A DNA stretch of 38,409 nucleotides from an uncultured Alistipes sp. (GTDB lineage: Bacteria > Bacteroidota > Bacteroidia > Bacteroidales > Rikenellaceae), in NCBI GenBank assembly GCA_900542505.1, contig UQNV01000019.1, positions 1-38,409 on the forward strand, written 5' to 3'. Position numbers and translations under genes: made by a program. The first letter of the stretch is position 1. Every line of letters starts with the position of its first letter. This document shows, piece after piece, positions 7,756 to 32,767 of the stretch. The notes beneath the pieces were generated by a model. The model did no database searches. It saw only the letters and a list, made by a program, of their open reading frames with translations, and was not told the DNA's origin.

Positions 7756-9077
7756 ACTTCTCCGTCATGACATACCTCCCCGTTCCGACGGCCGGAACGG
7801 GTTCCACGGCATCGGAAGGAGGGCTTCCCGTCCTCGGGGAGTCCGCCGCACCGCAGCATCCGGCGCCGTCCCGGACCGACGCAGACAGCATGACAACGGC
7901 GTTTCGGGAGGCTCCGTCACAGCCCGGCGCAACCCCCGGCACCGCATCCGACGGCTCCGCACGCCCCATGCCCGCATCGGGCGGCGATGCGACCCACGGC
8001 AATACCGGCCCCGGCAATGCGGCCCATGACAGTGCGGCCCACAGCGCCGCTCCGCATCGGGGCGAGCGGCCCGACAGCGTGACGCTCCGCCCGGCCGCAA
8101 CGGCCGGGGCATCCTCCCCCGCCCCGGCCGTCCGCAGGGACTCCCTGCAGGCCGACATGCCCGACTCGCTCCGCGGGGCCGACTCACTCGGCGCACAGGC
8201 GGGCGACTCGCTCTGGCAGAACCCGCTGAATGCCTTCATGCCGGGCGATTCGCTCTACAAGACGGCCACCTCGTTCCACTACCTGCCCGACGGCACCCCG
8301 CTCGAGGAGTTCCGCACGGTCGGCGCCGAGGAGCTCTTCGGCACGCAGGCCACACTGGCCCTACCGGACAGGATACCGGCACCCGCCCTGCCGCGGCTGA
8401 CCGACGAGGTTTCGTTCCAGGGGCTGGTGCTGCTGCTGAGCGTCATCTTCGGACTGCTGCTCTACCAATACCCCAACGACATCCGCGCGCTCATCGCCCG
8501 CGTCGCCTTCGAACGGCGCCAGTCGGAGCGCTCCTCCGAGGAGACGGGCAACGCCGGCTTCACCCGCTTCCTGAACATCGCCCTCGTACTGGGCATCCTC
8601 TTTGCGGGCGTCTCGGCCGTACGGCTCTGCGACCGGCCCGAAATCGGCCCGGCGCTGCTCCGCGAAGCGGGCGGCGGCGTCTCGCTGCTGCTGACACTGG
8701 GCGTCGCCCTGGCCTCGCTCCTCTTCTACCTCTACGGCATCCTGCTGCTGCGCATCGTCGGCGGAGTGACCCTCACGGGGCCCTTCGTCACGCAGCTCAT
8801 CCGCATCAAGCGGGGCTACGCGGCACTCGGCGCGGTATCGCTCGCCCCCGTCGTGCTGCTCTTCGCGCTGAGTCCGCAGGGCAGCGACGCAGTCTGGATT
8901 TCGCTGCTCGCTGCCGGATTGTTCATTACGTTCCTCCTGTACCTCAGGGAGACTTTTGCGCTCTTTATCAGCAAAAAAGTTTCGATTTTGCATTGGATTT
9001 TGTACCTTTGCGCCGTGGAAATCTTTCCCGTCAGTCTGTTGTGGCAGCTCGTCGTGAGATTGGGCGCCCAACCGTAA
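7752..9077 (+). CDS. DUF4271 multi-pass membrane protein with a disordered N-terminus
   Basis: This 441-residue protein has a C-terminal half that matches the DUF4271 family of Bacteroidetes, with about six hydrophobic helices from residue 215 to the end. The function of the family is unknown. The first 200 residues are low-complexity, rich in Ala, Gly, Pro, Ser, His and Asp. They include a run of DSL motifs (RRDSL, PDSL, ADSL, GDSL, GDSL) before the first helix. Family members usually carry a much shorter front. It is coupled by ATGA to the histidine kinase and is followed directly by hemD, an order seen in related genomes. The hemD promoter lies inside its last 100 bases. Confidence 0.8.
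   Translation: MNFSVMTYLPVPTAGTGSTASEGGLPVLGESAAPQHPAPSRTDADSMTTAFREAPSQPGATPGTASDGSARPMPASGGDATHGNTGPGNAAHDSAAHSAAPHRGERPDSVTLRPAATAGASSPAPAVRRDSLQADMPDSLRGADSLGAQAGDSLWQNPLNAFMPGDSLYKTATSFHYLPDGTPLEEFRTVGAEELFGTQATLALPDRIPAPALPRLTDEVSFQGLVLLLSVIFGLLLYQYPNDIRALIARVAFERRQSERSSEETGNAGFTRFLNIALVLGILFAGVSAVRLCDRPEIGPALLREAGGGVSLLLTLGVALASLLFYLYGILLLRIVGGVTLTGPFVTQLIRIKRGYAALGAVSLAPVVLLFALSPQGSDAVWISLLAAGLFITFLLYLRETFALFISKKVSILHWILYLCAVEIFPVSLLWQLVVRLGAQP
8980..9010 (+). promoter_or_regulatory. Promoter for hemD/rnpA/yidD inside the DUF4271 gene end
   Basis: TACCTTTG at 9003-9010 is a full TAnnTTTG box. An imperfect TTTCG at 8980-8984 sits at about the -33 place. Local base composition falls sharply to AT-rich. 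The start would be near 9017, about 63 bases before the hemD ATG. Confidence 0.6.
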
Positions 9078-22171: not shown

Positions 22172-22255
22172 GCCCAGGTGGTGAAATTGGTAGACACGCT
22201 ACTTTGAGGGGGTAGTGAACATTAGTTCGTGCAAGTTCGAGTCTTGTCCTGGGCA
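22172..22255 (+). tRNA. tRNA-Leu (anticodon GAG)
   Basis: The 84-base cloverleaf is complete. The acceptor stem GCCCAGG pairs with CCTGGGC, and the discriminator is A. The anticodon loop is TTGAGGG with GAG at positions 34-36. A long variable arm with a GAAC/GTTC stem is typical of leucine tRNAs, and the T-arm is GCAAG-TTCGAGT-CTTGT. The CCA end is not encoded. It reads CUU and CUC codons. It has its own promoter and terminator. Confidence 0.96.
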
Positions 22256-22258
22256 CTG

Positions 22259-22294
22259 AAAACCGCGTTAAACGAAAGTTTGACGCGGTTTTTT
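22259..22294 (+). terminator. Intrinsic terminator of tRNA-Leu
   Basis: A stem of 15 pairs (22259-22273 with 22278-22292, one G-T pair) closes a GAAA tetraloop and runs into six T's. Confidence 0.9.
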
Positions 22295-22932
22295 CATACC
22301 CCGTATCCGCCGAAAAGCCGCAGACACTCTTTCCGCCACACCCTCCATCGCGGCCTCACTCCCGGCCAAACCACGTAAAATCACGCCGACTGCCACCAAA
22401 CAATCCAATTCGAACCACATATACCTTATTATAATAGGCCATGCCATAGAGCCTAATATTACTATTTGAAATCAAAAACCGGCATACAGCATAAACGCTG
22501 AAATATCAAGCTTCTAAAATCATAAAAACTAACATTATTGCATCCCCCAAAAACAAACCGAGAAAAAATCATCGAAACATCTTACAATTTATAACCAAAA
22601 AACCCTTACGGCTGGAAAAAACACACTTTGTAGCATATTCCACCACCCTGTGCAAATTCAGACGAAGCACTCAAAAAAGCAGGCTGGGAAGCGACCAAGG
22701 ATTTTTTTCGACACGCCTGAATCCTATTTCCAGCGAAAGGATGCACGAAAATTACCGGACACACGGAAGAGTATACGATACACAATAATCTGCAAATTAG
22801 CAATATACACCACAATACAAATATCCACGGCCCATCACATTCCATCTTCGGATACTCCTGTTCATACCTCTATCCCCGCCACCGTTTCATCAAGTCGTTT
22901 CACAAAATGGATATACAAAATCAATAGTAATA
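22295..22932. other. AT-rich non-coding stretch after tRNA-Leu
   Basis: From about 22370 to 22975 the DNA drops to roughly 35-40% GC by eye, against well over 60% around it. Short open frames on both strands (108 codons at 22650-22976 plus, 79 codons at 22606-22845 minus) have no recognisable similarity, no clear ribosome site and biased composition. It may be decayed foreign DNA or a long regulatory spacer. No direct copy of the tRNA 3' end was found at its far side. Confidence 0.5.
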
Positions 22933-22964
22933 TTTGGATTTTCCGCTTAAGTTTTCTAATTTTG
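22933..22964 (+). promoter_or_regulatory. Perfect promoter before the repeat leader and lipoprotein genes
   Basis: TTTG at 22933-22936, 20 bases, then TAATTTTG at 22957-22964 match the Bacteroidetes consensus. The start would be near 22971. No closer promoter to the lipoprotein gene was seen, which implies a leader of about 490 bases, or a separate small RNA. Confidence 0.65.
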
Positions 22965-23070
22965 TTAGGTAATTAGCTACTACGAAAATGTAAGCAGCCG
23001 TCCGAAAAGGGCCCGAAAGAGGCTGCCGGAGCCGCTCCGAAGTCCCGCGCGACAAACGGGGAAAGCGGCG

Positions 23071-23310
23071 GTCCCGAGACCGCAAAAGCCCCGCAGGGCA
23101 CCCGGAACCGGACCCGGAAAACGCACCCCGCAGGAGACCCGGAACCGGACCCGGAAAACGCACCCCGCAGGAGACCCGGAACCGCGTCGGGAAACGCACC
23201 CGGAAAGCCTCCCGGAGCCGCGTCGGGAAACGCACTCCAGAAGGGCAATCCGAGGCCGGAACCGGGAAACGCACCCGAAAAGCCCCTCGGGGCAGGGTCG
23301 GGAGAAGCGC
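23071..23310 (+). repeat. GC-rich 36-37 bp tandem repeat array
   Basis: Units begin at 23101, 23138, 23175 and 23211, with a further partial unit near 23255 and a degenerate one before 23101. The first two are identical over 37 bases; later ones share CCGGAACCG and GGGAAACGCAC. All three minus-strand frames are open through it, giving Pro/Gly/Arg/Phe-rich nonsense and not a gene. It lies in the predicted leader of the lipoprotein operon. Confidence 0.8.
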
Positions 23311-23464
23311 TTCCGGGAAAGGGCGAACGGCAGCACACCGGACAGGAAAAAAGCCGAACATTGCAGAACGGTTCCCATGGCGTAGGGAACCCCAGGGCCG
23401 TCCCGCCGCACGGTACCCGGCCCAAGACAAACATCCGAGAAAATGTAGTTCAAATCCCCCTCAT

Positions 23465-25749
23465 ATGATGAAAAAACTTTACCTCTTTCTGCTGCTCTTC
23501 CTCACAGGAACATTCAGCGCAACCTTCACATCGTGCGACTCGGACGAGGACGGGAACGGTCCGTTAGTCGTTCCCGCAAACTCCTTCGCCTACAACAGAG
23601 ACGTCCAGCCGTTCGCCTCCGTACTTTATGTCTATATGTCTATGACGAGGTGGAGGGCATCTACACCTTCTACTTCTCGCCCTCCGACGGCATCACCGAC
23701 CTCGATGCCATGTGGCAGGCCAACGACTACATCCGAATCATCACCCCGATGCCCGCAGGCGACGTAAATCTGCTTGAAGAGGGCAATGAGCTCTCCTACA
23801 ACGAACTGATTGTTTCGCCCGCAACGGCCGAAAACATGGTGCAGAACACGCTCTCGCTGCGTCTGCCCAAGCTGAGCGAGGTGAAGATGTCGCTCAAGGT
23901 CGAGACGGCCGACGGCCAGACGCTCGACGCCAACTACAGCGGCACCTGCATCCGCATCACCAAGGAGCGCGAACAGGGCCCCGCCGTCGAGCTCGACACC
24001 CCGATGTTCAGCTGGTACATCGGCAAATCTTCGGCCGGCACCAACAACATCTACATGGCCATGGGCAACGCCCCCTACTCGATTTACCTCGGCACGCAGT
24101 TCTCCTACAAGGAGGATGCCGACGCCCTGGTGCTCGACTGCTTCATCGACAGCGGCGACGAGTGGCAGACCTTCCCCACGGGCACCTTCAAGAGCAGCGT
24201 CCGCTACGGCGACCATACCTTCCACGCCTCCAACAGCTACGTCCTGCGCTATGAGGGCGGCAGCTACACGCAGTTCCCCATCACCAGCGACGTGGTCATC
24301 GAGCGCGAGGGCAACATCACCACCATCACCACCGCCTACGTCGACGGCTACGGCGTCGAGCACGAGGTTACCTTCACGGGCGACCTGCGCGTGGGCAACG
24401 GTCTGAGCATGCCGCAGAACGCCCATCTGATGCGCGACATCGACTTCGTGGGCGACTACGGCGAAGGCACCTACCACGGCGACCTGTTCAAATGCGGCAG
24501 CGGCATCTCGGAGGTAACCATCTACGACGAGGAGAGCGACAACGACGAGCCCGACAGCTACGCCGTCAATCTGGTGCTCTTCAGCACGAAGTTCCTCGAC
24601 CCGAAGAACGAGCGCAAACTCGTCGAGGACGAATACGTCTACTCGGAATCCTACGAGCAGGGAACCTGGATGCCGACGGCCGAACTGGAGGTCCTCGGTG
24701 TAATCTTCCCCTTCGGCACCTACGGTGTGTTTGCCGACGGAAGCTCGCAAACGGGCTTCTACTCCTATGCCACCGGCGGCACAATCAACATCAAGGAGCT
24801 CGGCAACACCGACTACGAAATCACCTTCGACCTGGTAGCACAGAGCGGCTACAACATCAAGGGCAGCTTCACGGGTGACATCTTCCTCACCGACGCGTCG
24901 AACGACGACGAAAACGACGGTTCGTCGACGCTGACCGAGGACCTGCACCTCGACGTGGATTACATCCAGCAGGCCCGCTGCTACCCGCAGACGGAGATTT
25001 ATGTCGCCGGCATGGGATACATCCCCGTGGATGAAATCACCACCATCGCCCAGCCGGCCGCCATCGCGCCGTGCGGCTACCAGTATATCGACATCGGTCT
25101 GGCGACGGGCACCTACGAGCATGACCCGACGGGCGAATACGTCGACCCGGGCAAACTCCACGAGGGTGACATCATCCGCCTCGACCTGCTCGTCGAGCCG
25201 GGCGACCAGGACAAGATTACGACGGGTACCTACACCATTACGCGTAACCGCTACCTGAACACGCTCCAGCCCGGAGCCTGCTACCGCGGCTACCAGGCCA
25301 CGGACCATATCGGCACCCGCTGGCTCTACATCTCCAGCGCTATCGGCAACGGCAAGCCCCGCTACTACCATGACCCCAACTACATGGTACAGAACGACTG
25401 GCTCAACATCCCCTCGATGACCGGTTACGCAAGCCTCTACGAAGGCACCGTCACCATCACGAAGGCCGACGGCGGCGACAACTGGTACACCTTCGAAGTC
25501 AACGGCGAGGATGTGCTGCACCACAAGATTACCGGCTCGTGGACCGGACCGGTCGTACTGGGCGGCTCCGACACGCCGGTGGCCGACTCGGGCAAGCACT
25601 TCGACGAGGAAGACTCCGCATCGAGCGGTGCCATCGACGGAGGTTCGACCACCCAGCGCGAGCTCCGCAAAAAGCCCATCGAGAATCTGCGCGAGTATGT
25701 GACGAAGCCCGTCGAGAGCCAACCGTTCAAGCGCGCCGAATTCCGGTAG
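23465..25749 (+). pseudogene. Surface lipoprotein gene, frameshifted by an 8-bp duplication
   Basis: The 5' frame encodes MMKKLYLFLLLFLTGTFS with lipobox FTSC at Cys24. An acidic DSDED follows, of the type that directs Bacteroidetes lipoproteins to the outer surface. At 23627-23642 TATGTCTA is present twice in tandem. The original frame then runs on in nonsense and stops at 23767 (100 residues). Removing one copy joins VLYVY to DEVEGIYTFYFSP and restores a protein of 758 residues. The paralogue downstream reads SAIYELDDNDNYAFYLSPTAGIT at the same place, which supports the repair. The long body is beta-rich, without catalytic motifs I recognise. The gene is off as sequenced; slipped-strand switching could restore it. 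Confidence 0.85.
23627..23642 (+). repeat. 8-bp tandem duplication (TATGTCTA x2) that breaks the lipoprotein frame
   Basis: Copies lie at 23627-23634 and 23635-23642, followed by TGACGAG. A net gain of 8 shifts the frame by two. The first copy starts on a codon boundary of the signal-peptide frame, and dropping either copy gives TAT GTC TAT GAC GAG. Confidence 0.9.
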
Positions 25750-25842: not shown

Positions 25843-27732
25843 ATGAAAGCAAATTATTGGACAGGACTCCGCGTCCTGACATGGTCCGTATTATTTGCGG
25901 CAGGAGGTTTTGCATCCTGCTCGGATGACAACGAACAGGGTGAACCCACGCCGCCGCCCGTCGTCCTGAACAACCAAATCGAACTCGACGGCGCAACGCC
26001 CGTCGACATCCGCTCGGCCATCTACGAGCTGGACGACAACGACAACTACGCCTTCTACCTCTCCCCCACGGCCGGCATCACCCGCATCGAGGAGATGGAG
26101 GCCGCGAACGACTACCTGCGCGTGACGGTGGACGACCCCAAGGGGCTGTTCGACCCGGCAGCCGACGCCTTCGAGTTCTCGTACGGCGGCATTACGGTCT
26201 CCGACCGCACGATGTCGACCGTCGAATCGCTCGAGCTGGAGGTGGGCTACACGGAGGCCTCGGCCCGGCTGAAGCTCGTCATCGAGCTCAAGACGGCCGA
26301 TGAACGCTCGCTGCGCGTGAACTACGACAACACCTGCAACGTGGCCGCCCTTCCGATACTGGAGAACGAGTATGAGCTCGACGGCACGCCGACGGCCATC
26401 GGCAGCGCCGTGGCCCGGAAGAACCCCTCGGAGGGTCTGACGACCTACGGCTTCTATGCCGAGAGCGGCGTGACGGAGCCTTCGGAGGATATCCAGGGGC
26501 TGACCATCGTTCTGGGCGAGGTATCGACGACCGAAATCGACCTGTCGACGGCCGACCCGGCACAGGTATCGGTACGCTGCGGCGACTTCACCAACGGCGA
26601 GGGCACGACCGGCACGCTCCACATCGGCACCGACGCCAACGGCAAACTGACCCTCACGCTCGATGCCGAGCGCGACGGACTCCGCCTGCGCGCCGCCTAT
26701 ACGGGCGACTACACCATGAGCTACGAGGGCAACCGCTTCCTGCGCGTCACCCAGGGCAGCGAGGTCACCGAGACTCCCCTGACGAAGATTTTCGCCACGT
26801 CGGGCACCTCGAGCGTGCTGATGTTCGGCACGGCCGATGTCGAATCGCCCGAGCAGCTCGCGGAGGGAGACTATGCCGTTGCACTGACGTTGACGGCCAA
26901 CCAGCTCAAGGGCGGCACCTTCGGAACCGGCGATTTCCGCATCCGTCTCTTCGACTACAAGACCTACAAGACCTACGACAACTCGAAAGTCGATGAGCTG
27001 ACCGGCTCGCTGACGGTTGCCCGCATGGAAGACGACAAGACGCTCTTCCTGCAGCTGGAGGTGACCTTCCCCGACGGCCCGAAGATTGAAAGCGAATGGC
27101 TTGGCACGACTACGGCCGTCGACATGGAGCCCGACCTGACTCCCGTCGCCCCCTTCCGTTCGCACTTCACCCTCACGGCGGCCGACGGCACGACCGTCCA
27201 TCTGGACAAGGATTTGGGTTCGGTCGAGATGCGCATGCAGAAGAACTACAAGCTGCGCGGCGGCGACCCCGCGTATGGCGGCGCGACCTTCGACGCCTAC
27301 TTCTTCTACTTCCGTCCGGCGGGCGAGGAAACGACGAGCATCACCGACACCTACACCATCCCGCAGCTGATGCTCTGCGCGTCGGCCGTTCCGACCGACG
27401 GAGAACTCGACCTGGCGTCGGGCGACGAGGCGCTCCACTGGAACTTCAAGTACACGACCGAAAAGAGCAAGCTCTACTTCACCGAGTACTTCGAGAACTA
27501 CCAGATGTTCGGCAGCTGGACCTACCGCTGCCCGGACGACGTGAAGGTGACCGTTGTCAAGAACGACGACAAGACGTGGAAAATCACCTTCCGCATGGTT
27601 GACTACGGCCGCTTCAGCAACTACTCCTCCACCAAGGAGGGTACGCAGGGCACCGTGCTCATCGAGTGGGAGGGTCCAATGACCAAGTACTCGGGCTCGG
27701 AAACCAACGACCTGACCGACGCCGACTATTGA
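25843..27732 (+). CDS. Surface lipoprotein, paralogue of the preceding gene
   Basis: This 629-residue protein has a signal peptide and lipobox GFASC (Cys26), followed by SDDNEQGE, an acidic surface-export signal. After a Pro-rich spacer, residues of about 45-110 align with the same region of the upstream gene product (FYLSPTAGITRIEEMEAANDYLRV against FYFSPSDGITDLDAMWQANDYIRI). The rest is predicted beta-sheet-rich from its alternating pattern and Thr/Asp/Glu content. I do not recognise a named domain. The pair arose by duplication. Surface binding or adhesion is possible but unproven. It ends at a strong terminator. Confidence 0.85.
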   Translation: MKANYWTGLRVLTWSVLFAAGGFASCSDDNEQGEPTPPPVVLNNQIELDGATPVDIRSAIYELDDNDNYAFYLSPTAGITRIEEMEAANDYLRVTVDDPKGLFDPAADAFEFSYGGITVSDRTMSTVESLELEVGYTEASARLKLVIELKTADERSLRVNYDNTCNVAALPILENEYELDGTPTAIGSAVARKNPSEGLTTYGFYAESGVTEPSEDIQGLTIVLGEVSTTEIDLSTADPAQVSVRCGDFTNGEGTTGTLHIGTDANGKLTLTLDAERDGLRLRAAYTGDYTMSYEGNRFLRVTQGSEVTETPLTKIFATSGTSSVLMFGTADVESPEQLAEGDYAVALTLTANQLKGGTFGTGDFRIRLFDYKTYKTYDNSKVDELTGSLTVARMEDDKTLFLQLEVTFPDGPKIESEWLGTTTAVDMEPDLTPVAPFRSHFTLTAADGTTVHLDKDLGSVEMRMQKNYKLRGGDPAYGGATFDAYFFYFRPAGEETTSITDTYTIPQLMLCASAVPTDGELDLASGDEALHWNFKYTTEKSKLYFTEYFENYQMFGSWTYRCPDDVKVTVVKNDDKTWKITFRMVDYGRFSNYSSTKEGTQGTVLIEWEGPMTKYSGSETNDLTDADY

Positions 27733-27782
27733 CGGCGCACGACCTCGGCCGCAGGGCTCCTGCGGTCGGGAGCGGTACGAAG

Positions 27783-27939: not shown

Positions 27940-29367
27940 CTACATGCCGAAGGCGTGGAGGCCGATGCCGTCGTAGACGGCGCTCACCACGCCGAGCAGC
28001 AGCACGCCCGCCAGGCAGAGCACCAGCGCCGCGCGCGTATAGCCGTCGCTGCGGAACGATGCGATGGGCGAGTCGTTGGGGGTGATGTACATCGCCTTGA
28101 CCACCAGCAGGTAGTAGTAGAGCGAGATGACCGTATTGAGCAGGGCGATGAAGACCAGCACGTAGAATCCCTCGCGGAAGGCGGCGGCGAAGATGAAGAA
28201 CTTCGAGAAGAAGCCCGCGAAGGGCGGGATGCCCGCCAGCGAGAAGAGCCCCAGCGTCATGACCAGCGTAAGGCGCGGATTGGTGCGGTAGAGGCCGTTG
28301 TAGTCGTCACGCAGCACCTTGCCGCTGTGCTGCTCGACCGTCGAGATGACCCCGAAGACAGCCAGGTTGGCCGCCAGGTAGACCAGCACGTAGAAGACCA
28401 GCGAGGTCATGCCGAAGGCCGTACCGCCGATGACGCCCAGCATGATGTAGCCCGCCTGCGAGATGGACGAGAAGGCCATGAAGCGCTTGAGGTCCTGCTG
28501 CCGGATGGCGAAGAGGTTGGCCACCGTGATGCTGAGGATGATGACCCAGTAGAGGAGCGTCTGCCACTCGCGGACCATCGGGCCGAAGACCTTCACGAGG
28601 ACAGCCATCAGCACGAAGGCCGCCGCACCCTTCGAGACCACCGAAAGGTAGGAGGTCACCGCCGTGGGGGCACCCTGGTAGGTGTCGGCCGTCCAGAGGT
28701 GGAACGGCACGAGCGAGAGCTTGAAGCCCAGGCCGGCAAAGAAGAAGACCAGCGCCATGATTTGAAGCGGCGAGCCGGTGATGCGGGGCACCATGTCGTC
28801 GAAGTAGAGCGTACCGGTGGTGCCGTAGAAGAACGAGATGCCGTAGAGCATCAGACCGCTCGCAAAGAGGGCGCAGAGGATGTATTTGGCCCCCGCCTCG
28901 GCCGAGTGGTGCCTGTACTTGTCGAAGGCGACCAGACAGGCCATCGGCACCGAGGCCAGCTCGAGGCCGATGAAGAAGAGCAGGAAGTTGGCCGCGCCAA
29001 TCATGAAGTACATGCCCAGCAGCGTCGAAAGGGTGAGGATGTAGAACTCACCCTGCTTGTGGGCCGTATCCTCACGCCGCAGCCACGCGGTGGCCTGCAT
29101 GCAGACCACCAGCGCGCCGATGGAGAGGACACTCTTGATGACCGTGTGCATGGGCACATAGCGGAACATACCGCCGAAGAGGTCGCACGACGACGCCTTG
29201 GGGACGATGTTGAGCAGAATCGCCACGGTGAGCAGCGTGCAGGCTACGGCGGCGAAGTAGCGGCGGCCCCGTTCGCCGGCAATCAGGTCGTAGAGGAAGA
29301 GCAGGACGATGACCGCAATGAGCGACAGCTCGGCCTGCATGTAGGTGAATATGTTGCTGTATTCCAT
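27940..29367 (-). CDS. nuoN: Complex I-like subunit N (antiporter-like)
   Basis: This 475-residue membrane subunit has about 13-14 helices and belongs to the Mrp-antiporter-like proton-pumping subunits. Family motifs include [49 protein letters not shown] and [16 protein letters not shown]. It is the last gene of the operon, starting 9 bases after nuoM. A short empty stretch and the terminator at 27783 follow it. Confidence 0.95.
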
Positions 29368-29376
29368 AGGACCGAA

Positions 29377-30861
29377 TCAGTTGATGAGGTGCGCGATGAT
29401 TTCCGACACGCTCGAGCGGAGCATGTCGCTGACCCACAGCGGTGCAAGGCCCAGGCCTGCCACTGCGGCGATGAGGCAGATGACCGAGAGGCGCTCGTCC
29501 CACGTGGCGTCGGAGAGCTTCAGGTGTTCGGGGTTCTCGCAGGTGCCGTAGAGGATGCGGCCGATGACCCGCAGGATGTAGACCGCCGTGATGACAATCG
29601 AGGTGCAGGCGATGACGGTCACCACGCGGTGGAAGGTGTCGTCGTGCATGAAGGCGCCGTTGAAGATGGTCATCTCGGCCACGAAGCCGCTCAGGCCCGG
29701 CAGTCCGAGGTTGGCCAGGCCGGCGATGACGTAGCCGACGGCCAGGAAGGGCATGACGCGCATCAGGCCGCGCAGCTGGCGGACGTCACGCGTATGGGTG
29801 CGGCCGTAAATCATGCCGATGAGGGCGAAGAAGAGGGCCGTCATCAGTCCGTGGCTCAGCATCTGGAGGATGGCGCCGGTCGCCGCCGTGGTGTTCATCA
29901 TCAGGATGGCGAAGAGCACCAGTCCGCAGTGCGAGACGGACGAGTAGGCGTTGATATACTTCAGGTCGGTCTGCACGCAGGCCGAGAGTGCGCCGTAGAC
30001 CACCGAGATGGCGGTCAGGATGATGAAAATCCAGCTCAGCTCCTGTGCCGCGTCGGGCAGCAGGTACATCGCCACGCGGAAGCAGCCGTAGCCGCCCAGC
30101 TTCATCAGCACGCCGGCGTGGAGCATCGAGACGGCCGTCGGGGCCGAAGCGTGGCCGTCGGGACTCCACGTATGGAAGGGGAAGAGCGCCCCCAGCACAC
30201 CGAAGCCCACGAAGACGAGCGGGAACCAGACGCGCTGCAGCGAGAGGGGGATGTTGTGCAGCGCGGCGATTTCATTGATGTTCATCGTCGTGGCGCCTGC
30301 ACCGAAGTAGATGCCCAGGATGCCGATGAGCAGCAGTGCCGAGCCGCCCATGAGCATCAGCGTGAGCTTCATGGCCGAGTACTCCTTGCGGCCGCTGCCC
30401 CAGACGCCGATGAGCAGGTACATGGGGATGAGCGCCACCTCGTAGAAGAGGAACATCGTGAAGAGGTCGACCGAGATGAAGAACCCGAAGACGCCGACGC
30501 TCAGCAGGCTGTACCAGAGGAAGTACTCCTTGACCTGGTCCTTCATCTGCCACGAGGCGAAGGTGCCCGTGAAGACGATGATGGCCGAGAGCAGCAGCAT
30601 GGCCACCGAGATGCCGTCGACACCCACCGCATAGTGGATGTTGAGCGGCGCATACCAGACGTGGCTCTCCGTGAAGAGCATGGCGGCGCTCTCGCCCGCC
30701 TCCCTCAGCCCGAGGTAGCGGAAGACAAGCAGCACGGCCAGCGCCAGAAGCAGCGAGGCGCCCGTCACCATGACGGCATGAATCTGCCGCGTGCTCTTCG
30801 AGAGCCAGAGGCCCAGCATCATGAGCAGCGGGATGGCGGGGAACAGGGATAACATATTCAT
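29377..30861 (-). CDS. nuoM: Complex I-like subunit M (antiporter-like)
   Basis: This 494-residue subunit is homologous to NuoL/N and forms a proton channel in the membrane arm. Motifs include FFISVDLFTMFLFYEVALIPMYLLIGVWG, FHTWSPDGHASAPTAVSMLHAGVLMKLGGYG and NAYSSVSHCGLVLF. It starts 13 bases after nuoL. Length is normal. Confidence 0.96.
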   Translation of the reverse strand: MNMLSLFPAIPLLMMLGLWLSKSTRQIHAVMVTGASLLLALAVLLVFRYLGLREAGESAAMLFTESHVWYAPLNIHYAVGVDGISVAMLLLSAIIVFTGTFASWQMKDQVKEYFLWYSLLSVGVFGFFISVDLFTMFLFYEVALIPMYLLIGVWGSGRKEYSAMKLTLMLMGGSALLLIGILGIYFGAGATTMNINEIAALHNIPLSLQRVWFPLVFVGFGVLGALFPFHTWSPDGHASAPTAVSMLHAGVLMKLGGYGCFRVAMYLLPDAAQELSWIFIILTAISVVYGALSACVQTDLKYINAYSSVSHCGLVLFAILMMNTTAATGAILQMLSHGLMTALFFALIGMIYGRTHTRDVRQLRGLMRVMPFLAVGYVIAGLANLGLPGLSGFVAEMTIFNGAFMHDDTFHRVVTVIACTSIVITAVYILRVIGRILYGTCENPEHLKLSDATWDERLSVICLIAAVAGLGLAPLWVSDMLRSSVSEIIAHLIN

Positions 30862-30874
30862 AGTGCGACTCGTT

Positions 30875-32767
30875 TTAGCAGATTAACAACAGGAGCAGCG
30901 TGAAGCCCATCGCGCCGCCGAGGAACCAGATGCAGTAGCGCTGCACGTTGCCGCTCTGCATCTCGCGGATGGCCCACGAGGCGCTCTGCGTCGCCGTGGC
31001 CAGCAGGTTGAGGAAGCCGTCGACCACGTGGCGGTCGAACCAGGCGATGGGGGTCGAGATGCAGCCGAAGATGATGCGGTGGGTGACGAACTGATAGACC
31101 TCGTCGATGTAGAAGCGGTGGTAGGCCGCGCGGTGGAGTCCCGCAAAGCGCTCGGCCAGGCGGTCGGCCACGGGCTGCTTCTCGCGGGCATACATCCAGG
31201 TGGCCAGCGCGATGCCCGCAACGGCCACGCAGAGGCTCAGCGCAGCGACGCCTCCCTCGATGTGGATGTCGTACGACGTGCCGTCGGAGGAGATGAAGTG
31301 TCCGAAGGGGAGCCAGCCGGCGACGAGCGTCACGACGCCGAGCACCACCAGCGGCAGGGTCATCGTCCAGGGGGCCTCGTGGGGCGTGTGGGCGGCGTGG
31401 AGCTCGCGGTTCTCGCGGCCCCAGAAGATGCCGTAGTAGAGGCGGAACATGTAGAAGGCGGTCATGCCGGCGATGAGGGTCATCACCCACCCCATCACGG
31501 GGCTGAACGAGAAGCAGGCCGCAAGGATTTCATCCTTCGAGAAGAAGCCGCTCAGGGGCCAGATGCCGGCGATGGCCAGGCAGGCCACCAGGAACGTGAC
31601 GTGCGTCAGGGGCATGTAGCGCCGCAGGCCGCCCATGGCCGACATCTCGTTGGAGTGGACGGCGTGGATGATGCAGCCGGCGCCGAGGAAGAGCAGCGCC
31701 TTGAACATGGCGTGGGTGAAGAGGTGGAACATCGAGGCCATGTAGCCCAGACCTCCGGCGTGGGGGTCGGCCGAGGTGCAGACGCCCAGCGCCACAATCA
31801 TGAAGCCGATTTGGGAGATGGTACTGAAAGCCAGCACGCGCTTGATGTCGCTCTGCACGCAGGCCACCGCGGCGGCGTAGAGCGCCGTGAAGGCGCCGAT
31901 GTAGGCCGTCCAGTGGAGCACCTCGGGGGCGCAGCCGACGAACAGGGGGAACATGCGCGCCACCAGGTAGACGCCCGCAACGACCATCGTCGCGGCGTGG
32001 ATGAGCGCCGAGACGGGCGTCGGGCCCTCCATGGCGTCGGGCAGCCAGATGTGGAGCGGGAACATGGCGCTCTTGCCGGCGCCGCCGACGAACATCAGCC
32101 CCAGCGCCAGCGGAATCATCGCACCGGCCGAGGCGAGCAGCCGCGCGTCGGGCGTGAAGGAGAAGGTGCCGGCGTAGTAGCCGTAGACGAGGATGCCGAC
32201 AAGGAAGCCCAGGTCGGCGAAGCGCGTCACGATGAAGGCCTTCTTCGAGGCGGCGATGGCCTCGGGCCTGGTGTAGTAGAAGCCGATGAGCAGGTAGGAG
32301 CTGACGCCCACCAGCTCCCAGAAGAGGTACATCTGGAAGATGTTCGTCGCCACGACCAGCCCCATCATGCTCATGGTGAAGAGCGACAGGAAGGCGTAGT
32401 AGCGCTGGAAGCCCCGCTCGCCCTTCATGTAGCCCAGCGAGTAGATGTGGACCATGAGCGAGACGGTCGATATGACGACGAGCATCATCACCGAGATGGG
32501 GTCGAGCAGCACGCCCAGGTCGATGTGGAGCGACTCGCTGATGGGCAGCCAGACGCTGTTCCACGGGATGAGGGTCGGATAGAGCCCCTCGGCGTCGCGT
32601 CCGGCGCCGAAGTAGGCTGCGGCCGTCCACCAGCTCACCAGCGCCACGACGGCCACCACGGCCGTACCGACGGCTCCCGCGGCGGCGGGTTTGAGCTTCA
32701 TGCCGAAGAGCCCCAGGAAGAGGAAGCTCAGCAGCGGAAGCAGCAGGATGAGAATCGTATATTCCAT
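30875..32767 (-). CDS. nuoL: Complex I-like subunit L (antiporter-like, with lateral helix)
   Basis: This 630-residue subunit is the distal pump of the membrane arm, with a C-terminal amphipathic extension and final membrane helix. Motifs include FFWELVGVSSYLLIGFYYTRPEA in the form YLFWELVGVSS, HIWLPDAMEGPTPVSALIHAATMVVAGVYLVAR, and LAFSTISQIGFMIVALG. It follows nuoK by 22 bases. It is an ordinary NuoL and not an MrpA or NDH-F variant, as judged by gene order and length. Confidence 0.96.
   Translation of the reverse strand: MEYTILILLLPLLSFLFLGLFGMKLKPAAAGAVGTAVVAVVALVSWWTAAAYFGAGRDAEGLYPTLIPWNSVWLPISESLHIDLGVLLDPISVMMLVVISTVSLMVHIYSLGYMKGERGFQRYYAFLSLFTMSMMGLVVATNIFQMYLFWELVGVSSYLLIGFYYTRPEAIAASKKAFIVTRFADLGFLVGILVYGYYAGTFSFTPDARLLASAGAMIPLALGLMFVGGAGKSAMFPLHIWLPDAMEGPTPVSALIHAATMVVAGVYLVARMFPLFVGCAPEVLHWTAYIGAFTALYAAAVACVQSDIKRVLAFSTISQIGFMIVALGVCTSADPHAGGLGYMASMFHLFTHAMFKALLFLGAGCIIHAVHSNEMSAMGGLRRYMPLTHVTFLVACLAIAGIWPLSGFFSKDEILAACFSFSPVMGWVMTLIAGMTAFYMFRLYYGIFWGRENRELHAAHTPHEAPWTMTLPLVVLGVVTLVAGWLPFGHFISSDGTSYDIHIEGGVAALSLCVAVAGIALATWMYAREKQPVADRLAERFAGLHRAAYHRFYIDEVYQFVTHRIIFGCISTPIAWFDRHVVDGFLNLLATATQSASWAIREMQSGNVQRYCIWFLGGAMGFTLLLLLIC

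What the first reader, a model, noticed from the sequence alone, without database searches (positions are those of the whole stretch)
23627..23642. 8-bp tandem duplication switches a surface lipoprotein gene out of frame
TATGTCTA is present twice, back to back. With both copies the signal-peptide frame ends after 100 codons; with one copy it joins exactly to a 700-codon frame whose first residues align with the paralogue downstream. Short tandem repeats that alter frame in surface-protein genes are a classic way to vary expression, but an 8-base unit with only two copies could also be a recent mutation or an assembly slip. The downstream frame is otherwise intact over about 2.1 kb with no other lesion, which argues for recent or reversible loss.
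Basis: partly seen in the sequence, partly recalled or inferred. Interest (0 to 1): 0.7.

Follow-up and report, generated by a model that had tools for sequence, protein, structure and literature searches.

The report
Surface lipoprotein gene repeatedly knocked out
In a gut bacterium related to Alistipes, an eight-letter stutter in the DNA cuts short a probable cell-surface protein, and a close relative carries a different eight-letter stutter in the same gene, which suggests that losing this protein is repeatedly favoured rather than that the stutter is a built-in switch.

Summary
TATGTCTA stands twice at 23627-23642; the signal-peptide frame closes after 100 codons and an intact 701-codon frame follows. 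A natural uninterrupted 757-residue form exists (99% identical, cluster of 288).

The switch reading is only partly supported. There is no repeat tract, and some exact 8-bp tandem is expected 0.83 times per shuffled window. The nearest held genome (Alistipes sp. Marseille-P5061) has no tandem at that place. Yet its orthologue is also out of frame, with a different exact 8-bp tandem in its signal-peptide codons. In that genome none of the 20 judgeable in-gene 8-bp tandems shifts the frame; 97 could not be judged. Public proteins include three truncated forms of the gene, one ending at the window's site.

The gene evolves fast (dN/dS 0.65 against 0.10-0.18 in three neighbours), has an upstream promoter-like site, and its tandem partner gene is intact.

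Best reading: a real, recent loss of a surface lipoprotein under recurrent selection for loss, by ordinary small indels that may rarely revert; not an evolved simple-sequence switch. Reads were unavailable, so switching is untested.

The parts
23627..23642 (+). Exact 8-bp tandem duplication (TATGTCTA twice); periodic run of 17 bases, so about 1 base of junction homology
   Evidence: run length read
23465..23767 (+). Gene 1, upstream frame: lipoprotein signal peptide (lipobox FTSC, then acidic residues) and about 56 native residues, then an out-of-frame tail to the stop
23643..25749 (+). Gene 1, body frame after the tandem: 701 codons without a stop, near-identical to the rest of natural protein P0001
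25843..27732 (+). Gene 2: intact 629-aa paralogous lipoprotein gene directly downstream
22933..22964 (+). Bacteroidota-type promoter-like site (TTTG, spacer, TAnnTTTG) about 500 nt upstream of gene 1; consensus recalled, use not shown
   Evidence: 3 matches in the window, 0.04 expected in shuffles
23089..23311 (+). GC-rich imperfect repeats in the long leader between promoter-like site and gene 1; role unknown

Best explanation
This is a real and recent knock-out of a fast-evolving, probably surface-exposed lipoprotein of an Alistipes by a short tandem duplication, in a gene that is hit again and again. Shown: the frame break; the natural uninterrupted form; a second, different 8-bp tandem with a frame break in the orthologue of the nearest genome; truncated predicted proteins of the same gene in public data. 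Inferred: the protein is exposed and recognised by something (phage, antibody or competitor), so that loss is favoured in some hosts and presence in others. Ordinary small indels supply the losses. The OFF state can be undone only by rare slippage or by recombination with intact alleles.
For: Frame break and intact relative. Orthologue in L005/G001 also out of frame: its ATG frame closes after 36 codons, the body frame has no ATG, GTG or TTG before 7983, and TGCTCTTC stands twice at 7859-7874. Of the four closest loci (window, G001, G073, G024) gene 1 is out of frame in 2 and gene 2 in 0. In G001, 0 of 20 judgeable in-gene 8-bp tandems and 3 of 81 such 7-bp ones (one of the 81 a strand change) show a duplication-type shift, so such breaks are rare there. 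Three truncated forms of this gene in public data, 36, 15 and 4 members. dN/dS 0.645 for gene 1 and 0.489 for gene 2, against 0.096-0.18 for three neighbours on the other strand. Adaptive loss and reversion in gut Bacteroides is argued in PMC11379459 (passages).
Against: Only two DNA-level cases. In L005 the start-to-cysteine distance is 71 nt against 66 in the window, so that lesion is net +5 against the known relatives and its direct ancestor was not seen. No control gene was searched for truncated forms, so an excess is not shown. High dN/dS can also mean relaxed constraint. The start-proximal scan gave control-type shifts about as often as duplication-type ones overall. Surface exposure rests on sequence; the export-like motif is clear in the window and P0001 but not in P0002 (CEKND).
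Confidence: 0.6

Rival explanations
1. Reversible phase variation by short tandem duplication: the duplication arises and is lost often enough that one clone holds ON and OFF cells, as reported for pneumococcal capsule genes.
For: Two different exact 8-bp tandems, each with a frame break, in orthologues of two strains; a truncated form ends at the window's site (P0034); uninterrupted forms common.
Against: Different sites in the two strains; two short units revert slowly (recalled); 8 bp is not over-represented against the trend in intergenic DNA of G001 (excess 23.5 for 7 bp, 23.1 for 8 bp, 9.8 for 10 bp). Reversion untested.
Confidence: 0.17
2. Neutral decay: the gene is dispensable and is being lost, with no selection for loss and no way back.
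For: Several broken forms; high dN/dS fits relaxed constraint; a match in only 16 of 180 genus genomes.
Against: No second lesion in the 701-codon body; promoter-like site present; uninterrupted clusters are large (288, 973 and 1298 members for P0001, P0002 and P0013); a block with dS 0.015-0.045, below the neighbours' 0.10-0.18, suggests recent exchange of alleles.
Confidence: 0.14
3. Assembly or sequencing error: the cell has one unit.
For: The window's own assembly and reads are not held, so it cannot be excluded here.
Against: An exact 8-bp duplication is an unusual error, and a separate assembly has an analogous lesion in the same gene.
Confidence: 0.05
4. Footprint of a mobile element: an insertion with 8-bp target duplication was excised and left both copies.
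For: Both tandems are 8 bp with 0-1 base of junction homology (run 16 in L005; 17 in the window).
Against: A rough scan of insertion-sequence-sized repeats in G001 found flanking duplications of 4-6 bp or none, never 8 (edges within 2 bases only); such footprints are rare in bacteria (recalled).
Confidence: 0.04

Closest known systems
Spontaneous tandem duplications in pneumococcal capsule genes (Waite et al. 2001, 2003; seen only as citations and one sentence in PMC4022640, otherwise recalled)
   Same: Tandem duplication inside a surface-trait gene, no pre-existing repeat tract, sites differ between strains, gene off.
   Different: Lipoprotein gene of a gut commensal; reversion not shown here; units only 8 bp.
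Adaptive loss of function with reversion in gut Bacteroides (PMC11379459, passages)
   Same: Recurrent loss in envelope genes of Bacteroidales, attributed to fluctuating pressures such as phage.
   Different: That work reports stop-codon mutations; here short tandem duplications and probable small indels. Selection not measured here.
Simple-sequence-repeat contingency loci (review PMC11868660, passages)
   Same: Frame change by repeat units in a surface-protein gene.
   Different: Two units only, no tract shared with the orthologue, no evidence of hypermutability.
Invertible promoters of Bacteroidales surface genes (listings and passages)
   Same: Surface gene in Bacteroidales; a 15-nt inverted repeat touches the promoter-like site.
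   Different: The lesion is in the coding region; inversion not demonstrated.

Membership tests
Simple-sequence-repeat contingency locus | Repeat tract longer than chance would give | tested here: not met
   Two 8-bp units; 0.83 such tandems expected per shuffled window
Simple-sequence-repeat contingency locus | Tract at the same place in orthologues with varying copy number | tested here: not met
   No tandem at the homologous place in L005; one orthologue with DNA close enough to test
Simple-sequence-repeat contingency locus | High-frequency reversible switching | not testable with these tools
   No reads, no cultures
Tandem-duplication phase variation (pneumococcal capsule type) | Tandem duplication within the coding region that breaks the frame | tested here: met
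   Window; also a tandem with frame break in L005
Tandem-duplication phase variation (pneumococcal capsule type) | Precise reversion at measurable rate | not testable with these tools
   Needs reads or passage
Recurrent adaptive loss of function | Independent broken alleles of the same gene in different lineages | tested here: met
   Window and L005 at DNA level; P0033, P0034, P0035 as predicted proteins only
Recurrent adaptive loss of function | More breaks than in comparable genes | tested here: inconclusive
   G001 scan suggests rarity elsewhere, but only a minority of tandems could be judged and no control gene was searched in the protein collection
Surface-exposed Bacteroidota lipoprotein | Lipobox cysteine followed by an acidic export signal | tested here: met
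   Read from the sequence: CDSDED in the window, CDSDDD in P0001; similar to CS(D/E)2 in PMC6222051 (passages); P0002 has CEKND, less clear
Transferrin-binding-protein-like fold | Shared fold of the N-terminal domain | tested here: inconclusive
Invertible promoter | Inverted repeats flanking the promoter, with both orientations found | tested here: inconclusive
   14 of 15 inverted repeat at 22452-22466 and 22923-22937; 7 of 200 simulated sequences did as well; orientations not tested

The most novel reading that the evidence does not exclude
Two exact 8-bp duplications with almost no junction homology, in one gene of two strains, could come from a process that makes 8-bp staggered cuts and fills them in at this locus (an abortive transposase- or integrase-like activity), acting as a gene-specific OFF generator.
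Probability: 0.05. Interest if true: 0.8.

Novelty: new member of a known kind. Interest (0 to 1): 0.42.

Why it matters
It points to a surface-type lipoprotein family that matches no Pfam or NCBIfam family, in a common gut genus, as a probable repeated target of loss, hence a candidate phage receptor or antibody target. It gives strain collections a concrete locus at which to test adaptive loss and reversion in gut bacteria. It also warns that gene callers can hide such breaks by starting the protein inside the body frame, where both broken genes have long open frames.

Tried and rejected
Genetic code 4: the kin are Alistipes and table 11 fits. DNA hairpin at the tandem: z 0.48, none. Programmed frameshifting: no X XXY YYZ heptamer in the proper frame at 23500-23767. 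Internal restart (for example ATG 23749): possible, but the product would lack the signal peptide. Viral contigs: no match. The first frame-break scan of G001 was too loose: duplication-type and control shifts were equally common (43 and 48 for 8 bp), so I replaced it by a codon-usage test and a start-proximal test. One search, units of 7 bp or more and no start of the body frame itself: five duplication-type and three control-type rows; only C4:101854 (this gene) has a lipoprotein-type start, and the C2:303840 row has a membrane-like start. 8-bp specificity genome-wide: rejected. Hot spot at the window's site: P0034 ends there too, but with four breaks in about 120 sampled codons this is not rare (my estimate, about 0.15). 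Function from fold: Foldseek matches have TM-scores near 0.1 and identify nothing; folds not listed by VIA-align are not excluded.

Truncated proteins, all 17 (read): nine have out-of-frame-looking tails (P0033, P0035, P0038, P0039, P0046, P0047, P0048, P0049, P0050), three have sequencing-adapter-like tails (P0037, P0041, P0043; adapter look recalled), two end without a tail (P0040, P0042: nonsense or contig end), one has an in-frame gap (P0044), two are unclear (P0045, P0051). Five of the nine (P0046, P0047, P0048, P0050 to the paralogue, P0049 to P0002) are not of the window's own clade. No control gene was run, so these are not used as proof of excess.

Full report
What is there. TATGTCTA is present twice, back to back, at 23627-23642. 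The frame that begins at ATG 23465 or 23468 encodes a lipoprotein signal peptide and closes at 23765-23767. A second frame is open from after a stop at 23446 to 25749, 701 codons of it after the tandem. The two frames match consecutive parts of one natural protein, P0001 (757 aa, 99% identical by BLASTP over 96% of the query, cluster of 288 sequences). The tandem by itself is not remarkable: shuffled windows hold 0.83 exact 8-bp tandems on average.

Where it is. The window's own assembly is not held; the nearest genome held, G001, shares 27% of sampled 31-letter words. Genes 1 and 2 form a tandem pair of related lipoprotein genes between tRNA-Leu (22172-22256) and nuo-type genes on the other strand (30875-32767 is NuoL-like by Pfam; the two nearer ones at 27940-30861 are named by position only). 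The pair is also present in G073 and G024. In the genus survey 16 of 180 genomes had a match at E <= 1e-10; beyond G001, G073 and G024 these are distant relatives.

A second broken orthologue. In L005 the orthologous gene begins at ATG 7837, but that frame closes after 36 codons, while the body frame has no ATG, GTG or TTG before 7983. TGCTCTTC stands twice at 7859-7874, inside the signal-peptide codons. It is the only exact 8-bp tandem in that 18,756-base locus, and its 16-base string occurs once in the genome. There is no tandem at the place homologous to the window's. The distance from ATG to the lipobox cysteine is 71 nt, against 66 in the window and residue 23 in P0001 and P0002, so the lesion is net +5 against those relatives. 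An 8-bp duplication in a signal peptide one codon shorter is the simplest reading, but its direct ancestor was not seen. Of the four closest loci (window, G001, G073, G024) gene 1 is out of frame in two and gene 2 in none.

Is this unusual in the genome? I joined the fetched stretches of G001 and scanned exact tandems. With codon usage trained on 751 long ORFs, 20 of 117 8-bp tandems could be judged as lying in a gene and none of the 20 shifts the frame. For 7-bp units, of 242, 77 keep the frame, 3 shift it as a duplication would, 1 changes strand and 161 could not be judged. A second test for tandems close to a start codon left this gene as the only one with a lipoprotein-type start, although control shifts were about as common overall. 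So a gene broken by a short tandem seems rare there, and finding the orthologue of the window's gene among the few is unlikely by chance (below 1% if about 4 of some 2,000 genes are hit; my estimate, the genes were not counted). Units of 8 bp are not special: the intergenic excess is 23.5 for 7 bp, 23.1 for 8 bp and 9.8 for 10 bp. Insertion-sequence-sized repeats showed no 8-bp flanking duplication in a rough scan.

Other truncated forms. A search with the 100-residue broken frame found three proteins among nine candidates, each a truncated form of this gene: P0033 (132 aa, 36 members), P0035 (132 aa, 4 members) and P0034 (56 aa, 15 members), which ends at the window's site. A profile search over N-terminal parts of the family and its paralogue found 17 proteins, of which nine have out-of-frame-looking tails. 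Their DNA was not seen and no control gene was searched, so I use them as support for recurrence, not for excess.

Evolution of the locus. In 250-base steps the neighbouring DNA is mostly 93-99% identical to L005, but genes 1 and 2 drop to 69-88% over most of their length, with blocks of 98-99% at 25001-25500 and 95-96% at 27251-27750. dN/dS is 0.645 for gene 1 and 0.489 for gene 2, against 0.18, 0.096 and 0.165 for three nuo-type genes. In codons 400-600 of the gene 1 alignment dS is 0.015-0.045, lower than in those neighbours (0.10-0.18), which suggests exchange of alleles. A Bacteroidota-type promoter-like site is present at 22933-22964. This fits a diversifying surface protein whose loss here is recent, though relaxed constraint is not excluded.

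How it most likely works. Step 1, shown: the reading frame is broken and no signal-bearing full-length product can be read in one frame. Step 2, inferred: the surface protein is absent while the partner gene remains readable. Step 3, inferred: loss is favoured when something targets the protein, and intact alleles persist elsewhere, the pattern argued for gut Bacteroides in PMC11379459 (passages). A repeat-tract switch fails two tested criteria. A switch by spontaneous short duplication, as cited for pneumococcal capsule genes (passages of PMC4022640), remains open because reversibility could not be tested.

What is in print. The phase-variation review PMC11868660 (passages) has no occurrence of the word duplication in its held text. 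Searches for Alistipes with phase variation and for Alistipes with frameshift, surface and lipoprotein counted 17 and 13 papers, of which 17 and 10 were listed. From titles and starts of abstracts none appears to treat this gene; I opened none of them. A term search for pneumococcal tandem sequence duplications found no paper.

Noticed in passing
22452-22466 and 22923-22937: A 15-nt inverted repeat (14 of 15) encloses 456 nt upstream of gene 1, and its right arm overlaps the TTTG box of the promoter-like site: a candidate invertible segment. 7 of 200 simulated sequences did as well.
   Followed up: partly
23089-23311: GC-rich imperfect repeats of about 37 nt in the long leader of gene 1.
   Followed up: no
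22256-23464; L005 943-7836: Between tRNA-Leu and gene 1 the window has 1.2 kb and the relative 6.9 kb of non-matching DNA, so this may be an insertion hot spot beside a tRNA gene.
   Followed up: partly
window 25001-25500 against L005: Block 98-99% identical inside otherwise 69-88% identical genes, with dS below that of neighbouring genes: probable recent allele exchange.
   Followed up: partly
G001 C2:303827, C3:308413, C3:504432: Three 7-bp exact tandems with a coding-frame shift of the duplication type: candidate broken genes in the relative.
   Followed up: no
window 25843-27732, residues 377-414 of the product: Gene 2 shows a sub-threshold match to Rib-type domains (RibLong E 0.00076, YPDG_rpt E 0.0005, both under their cut-offs).
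   Followed up: no
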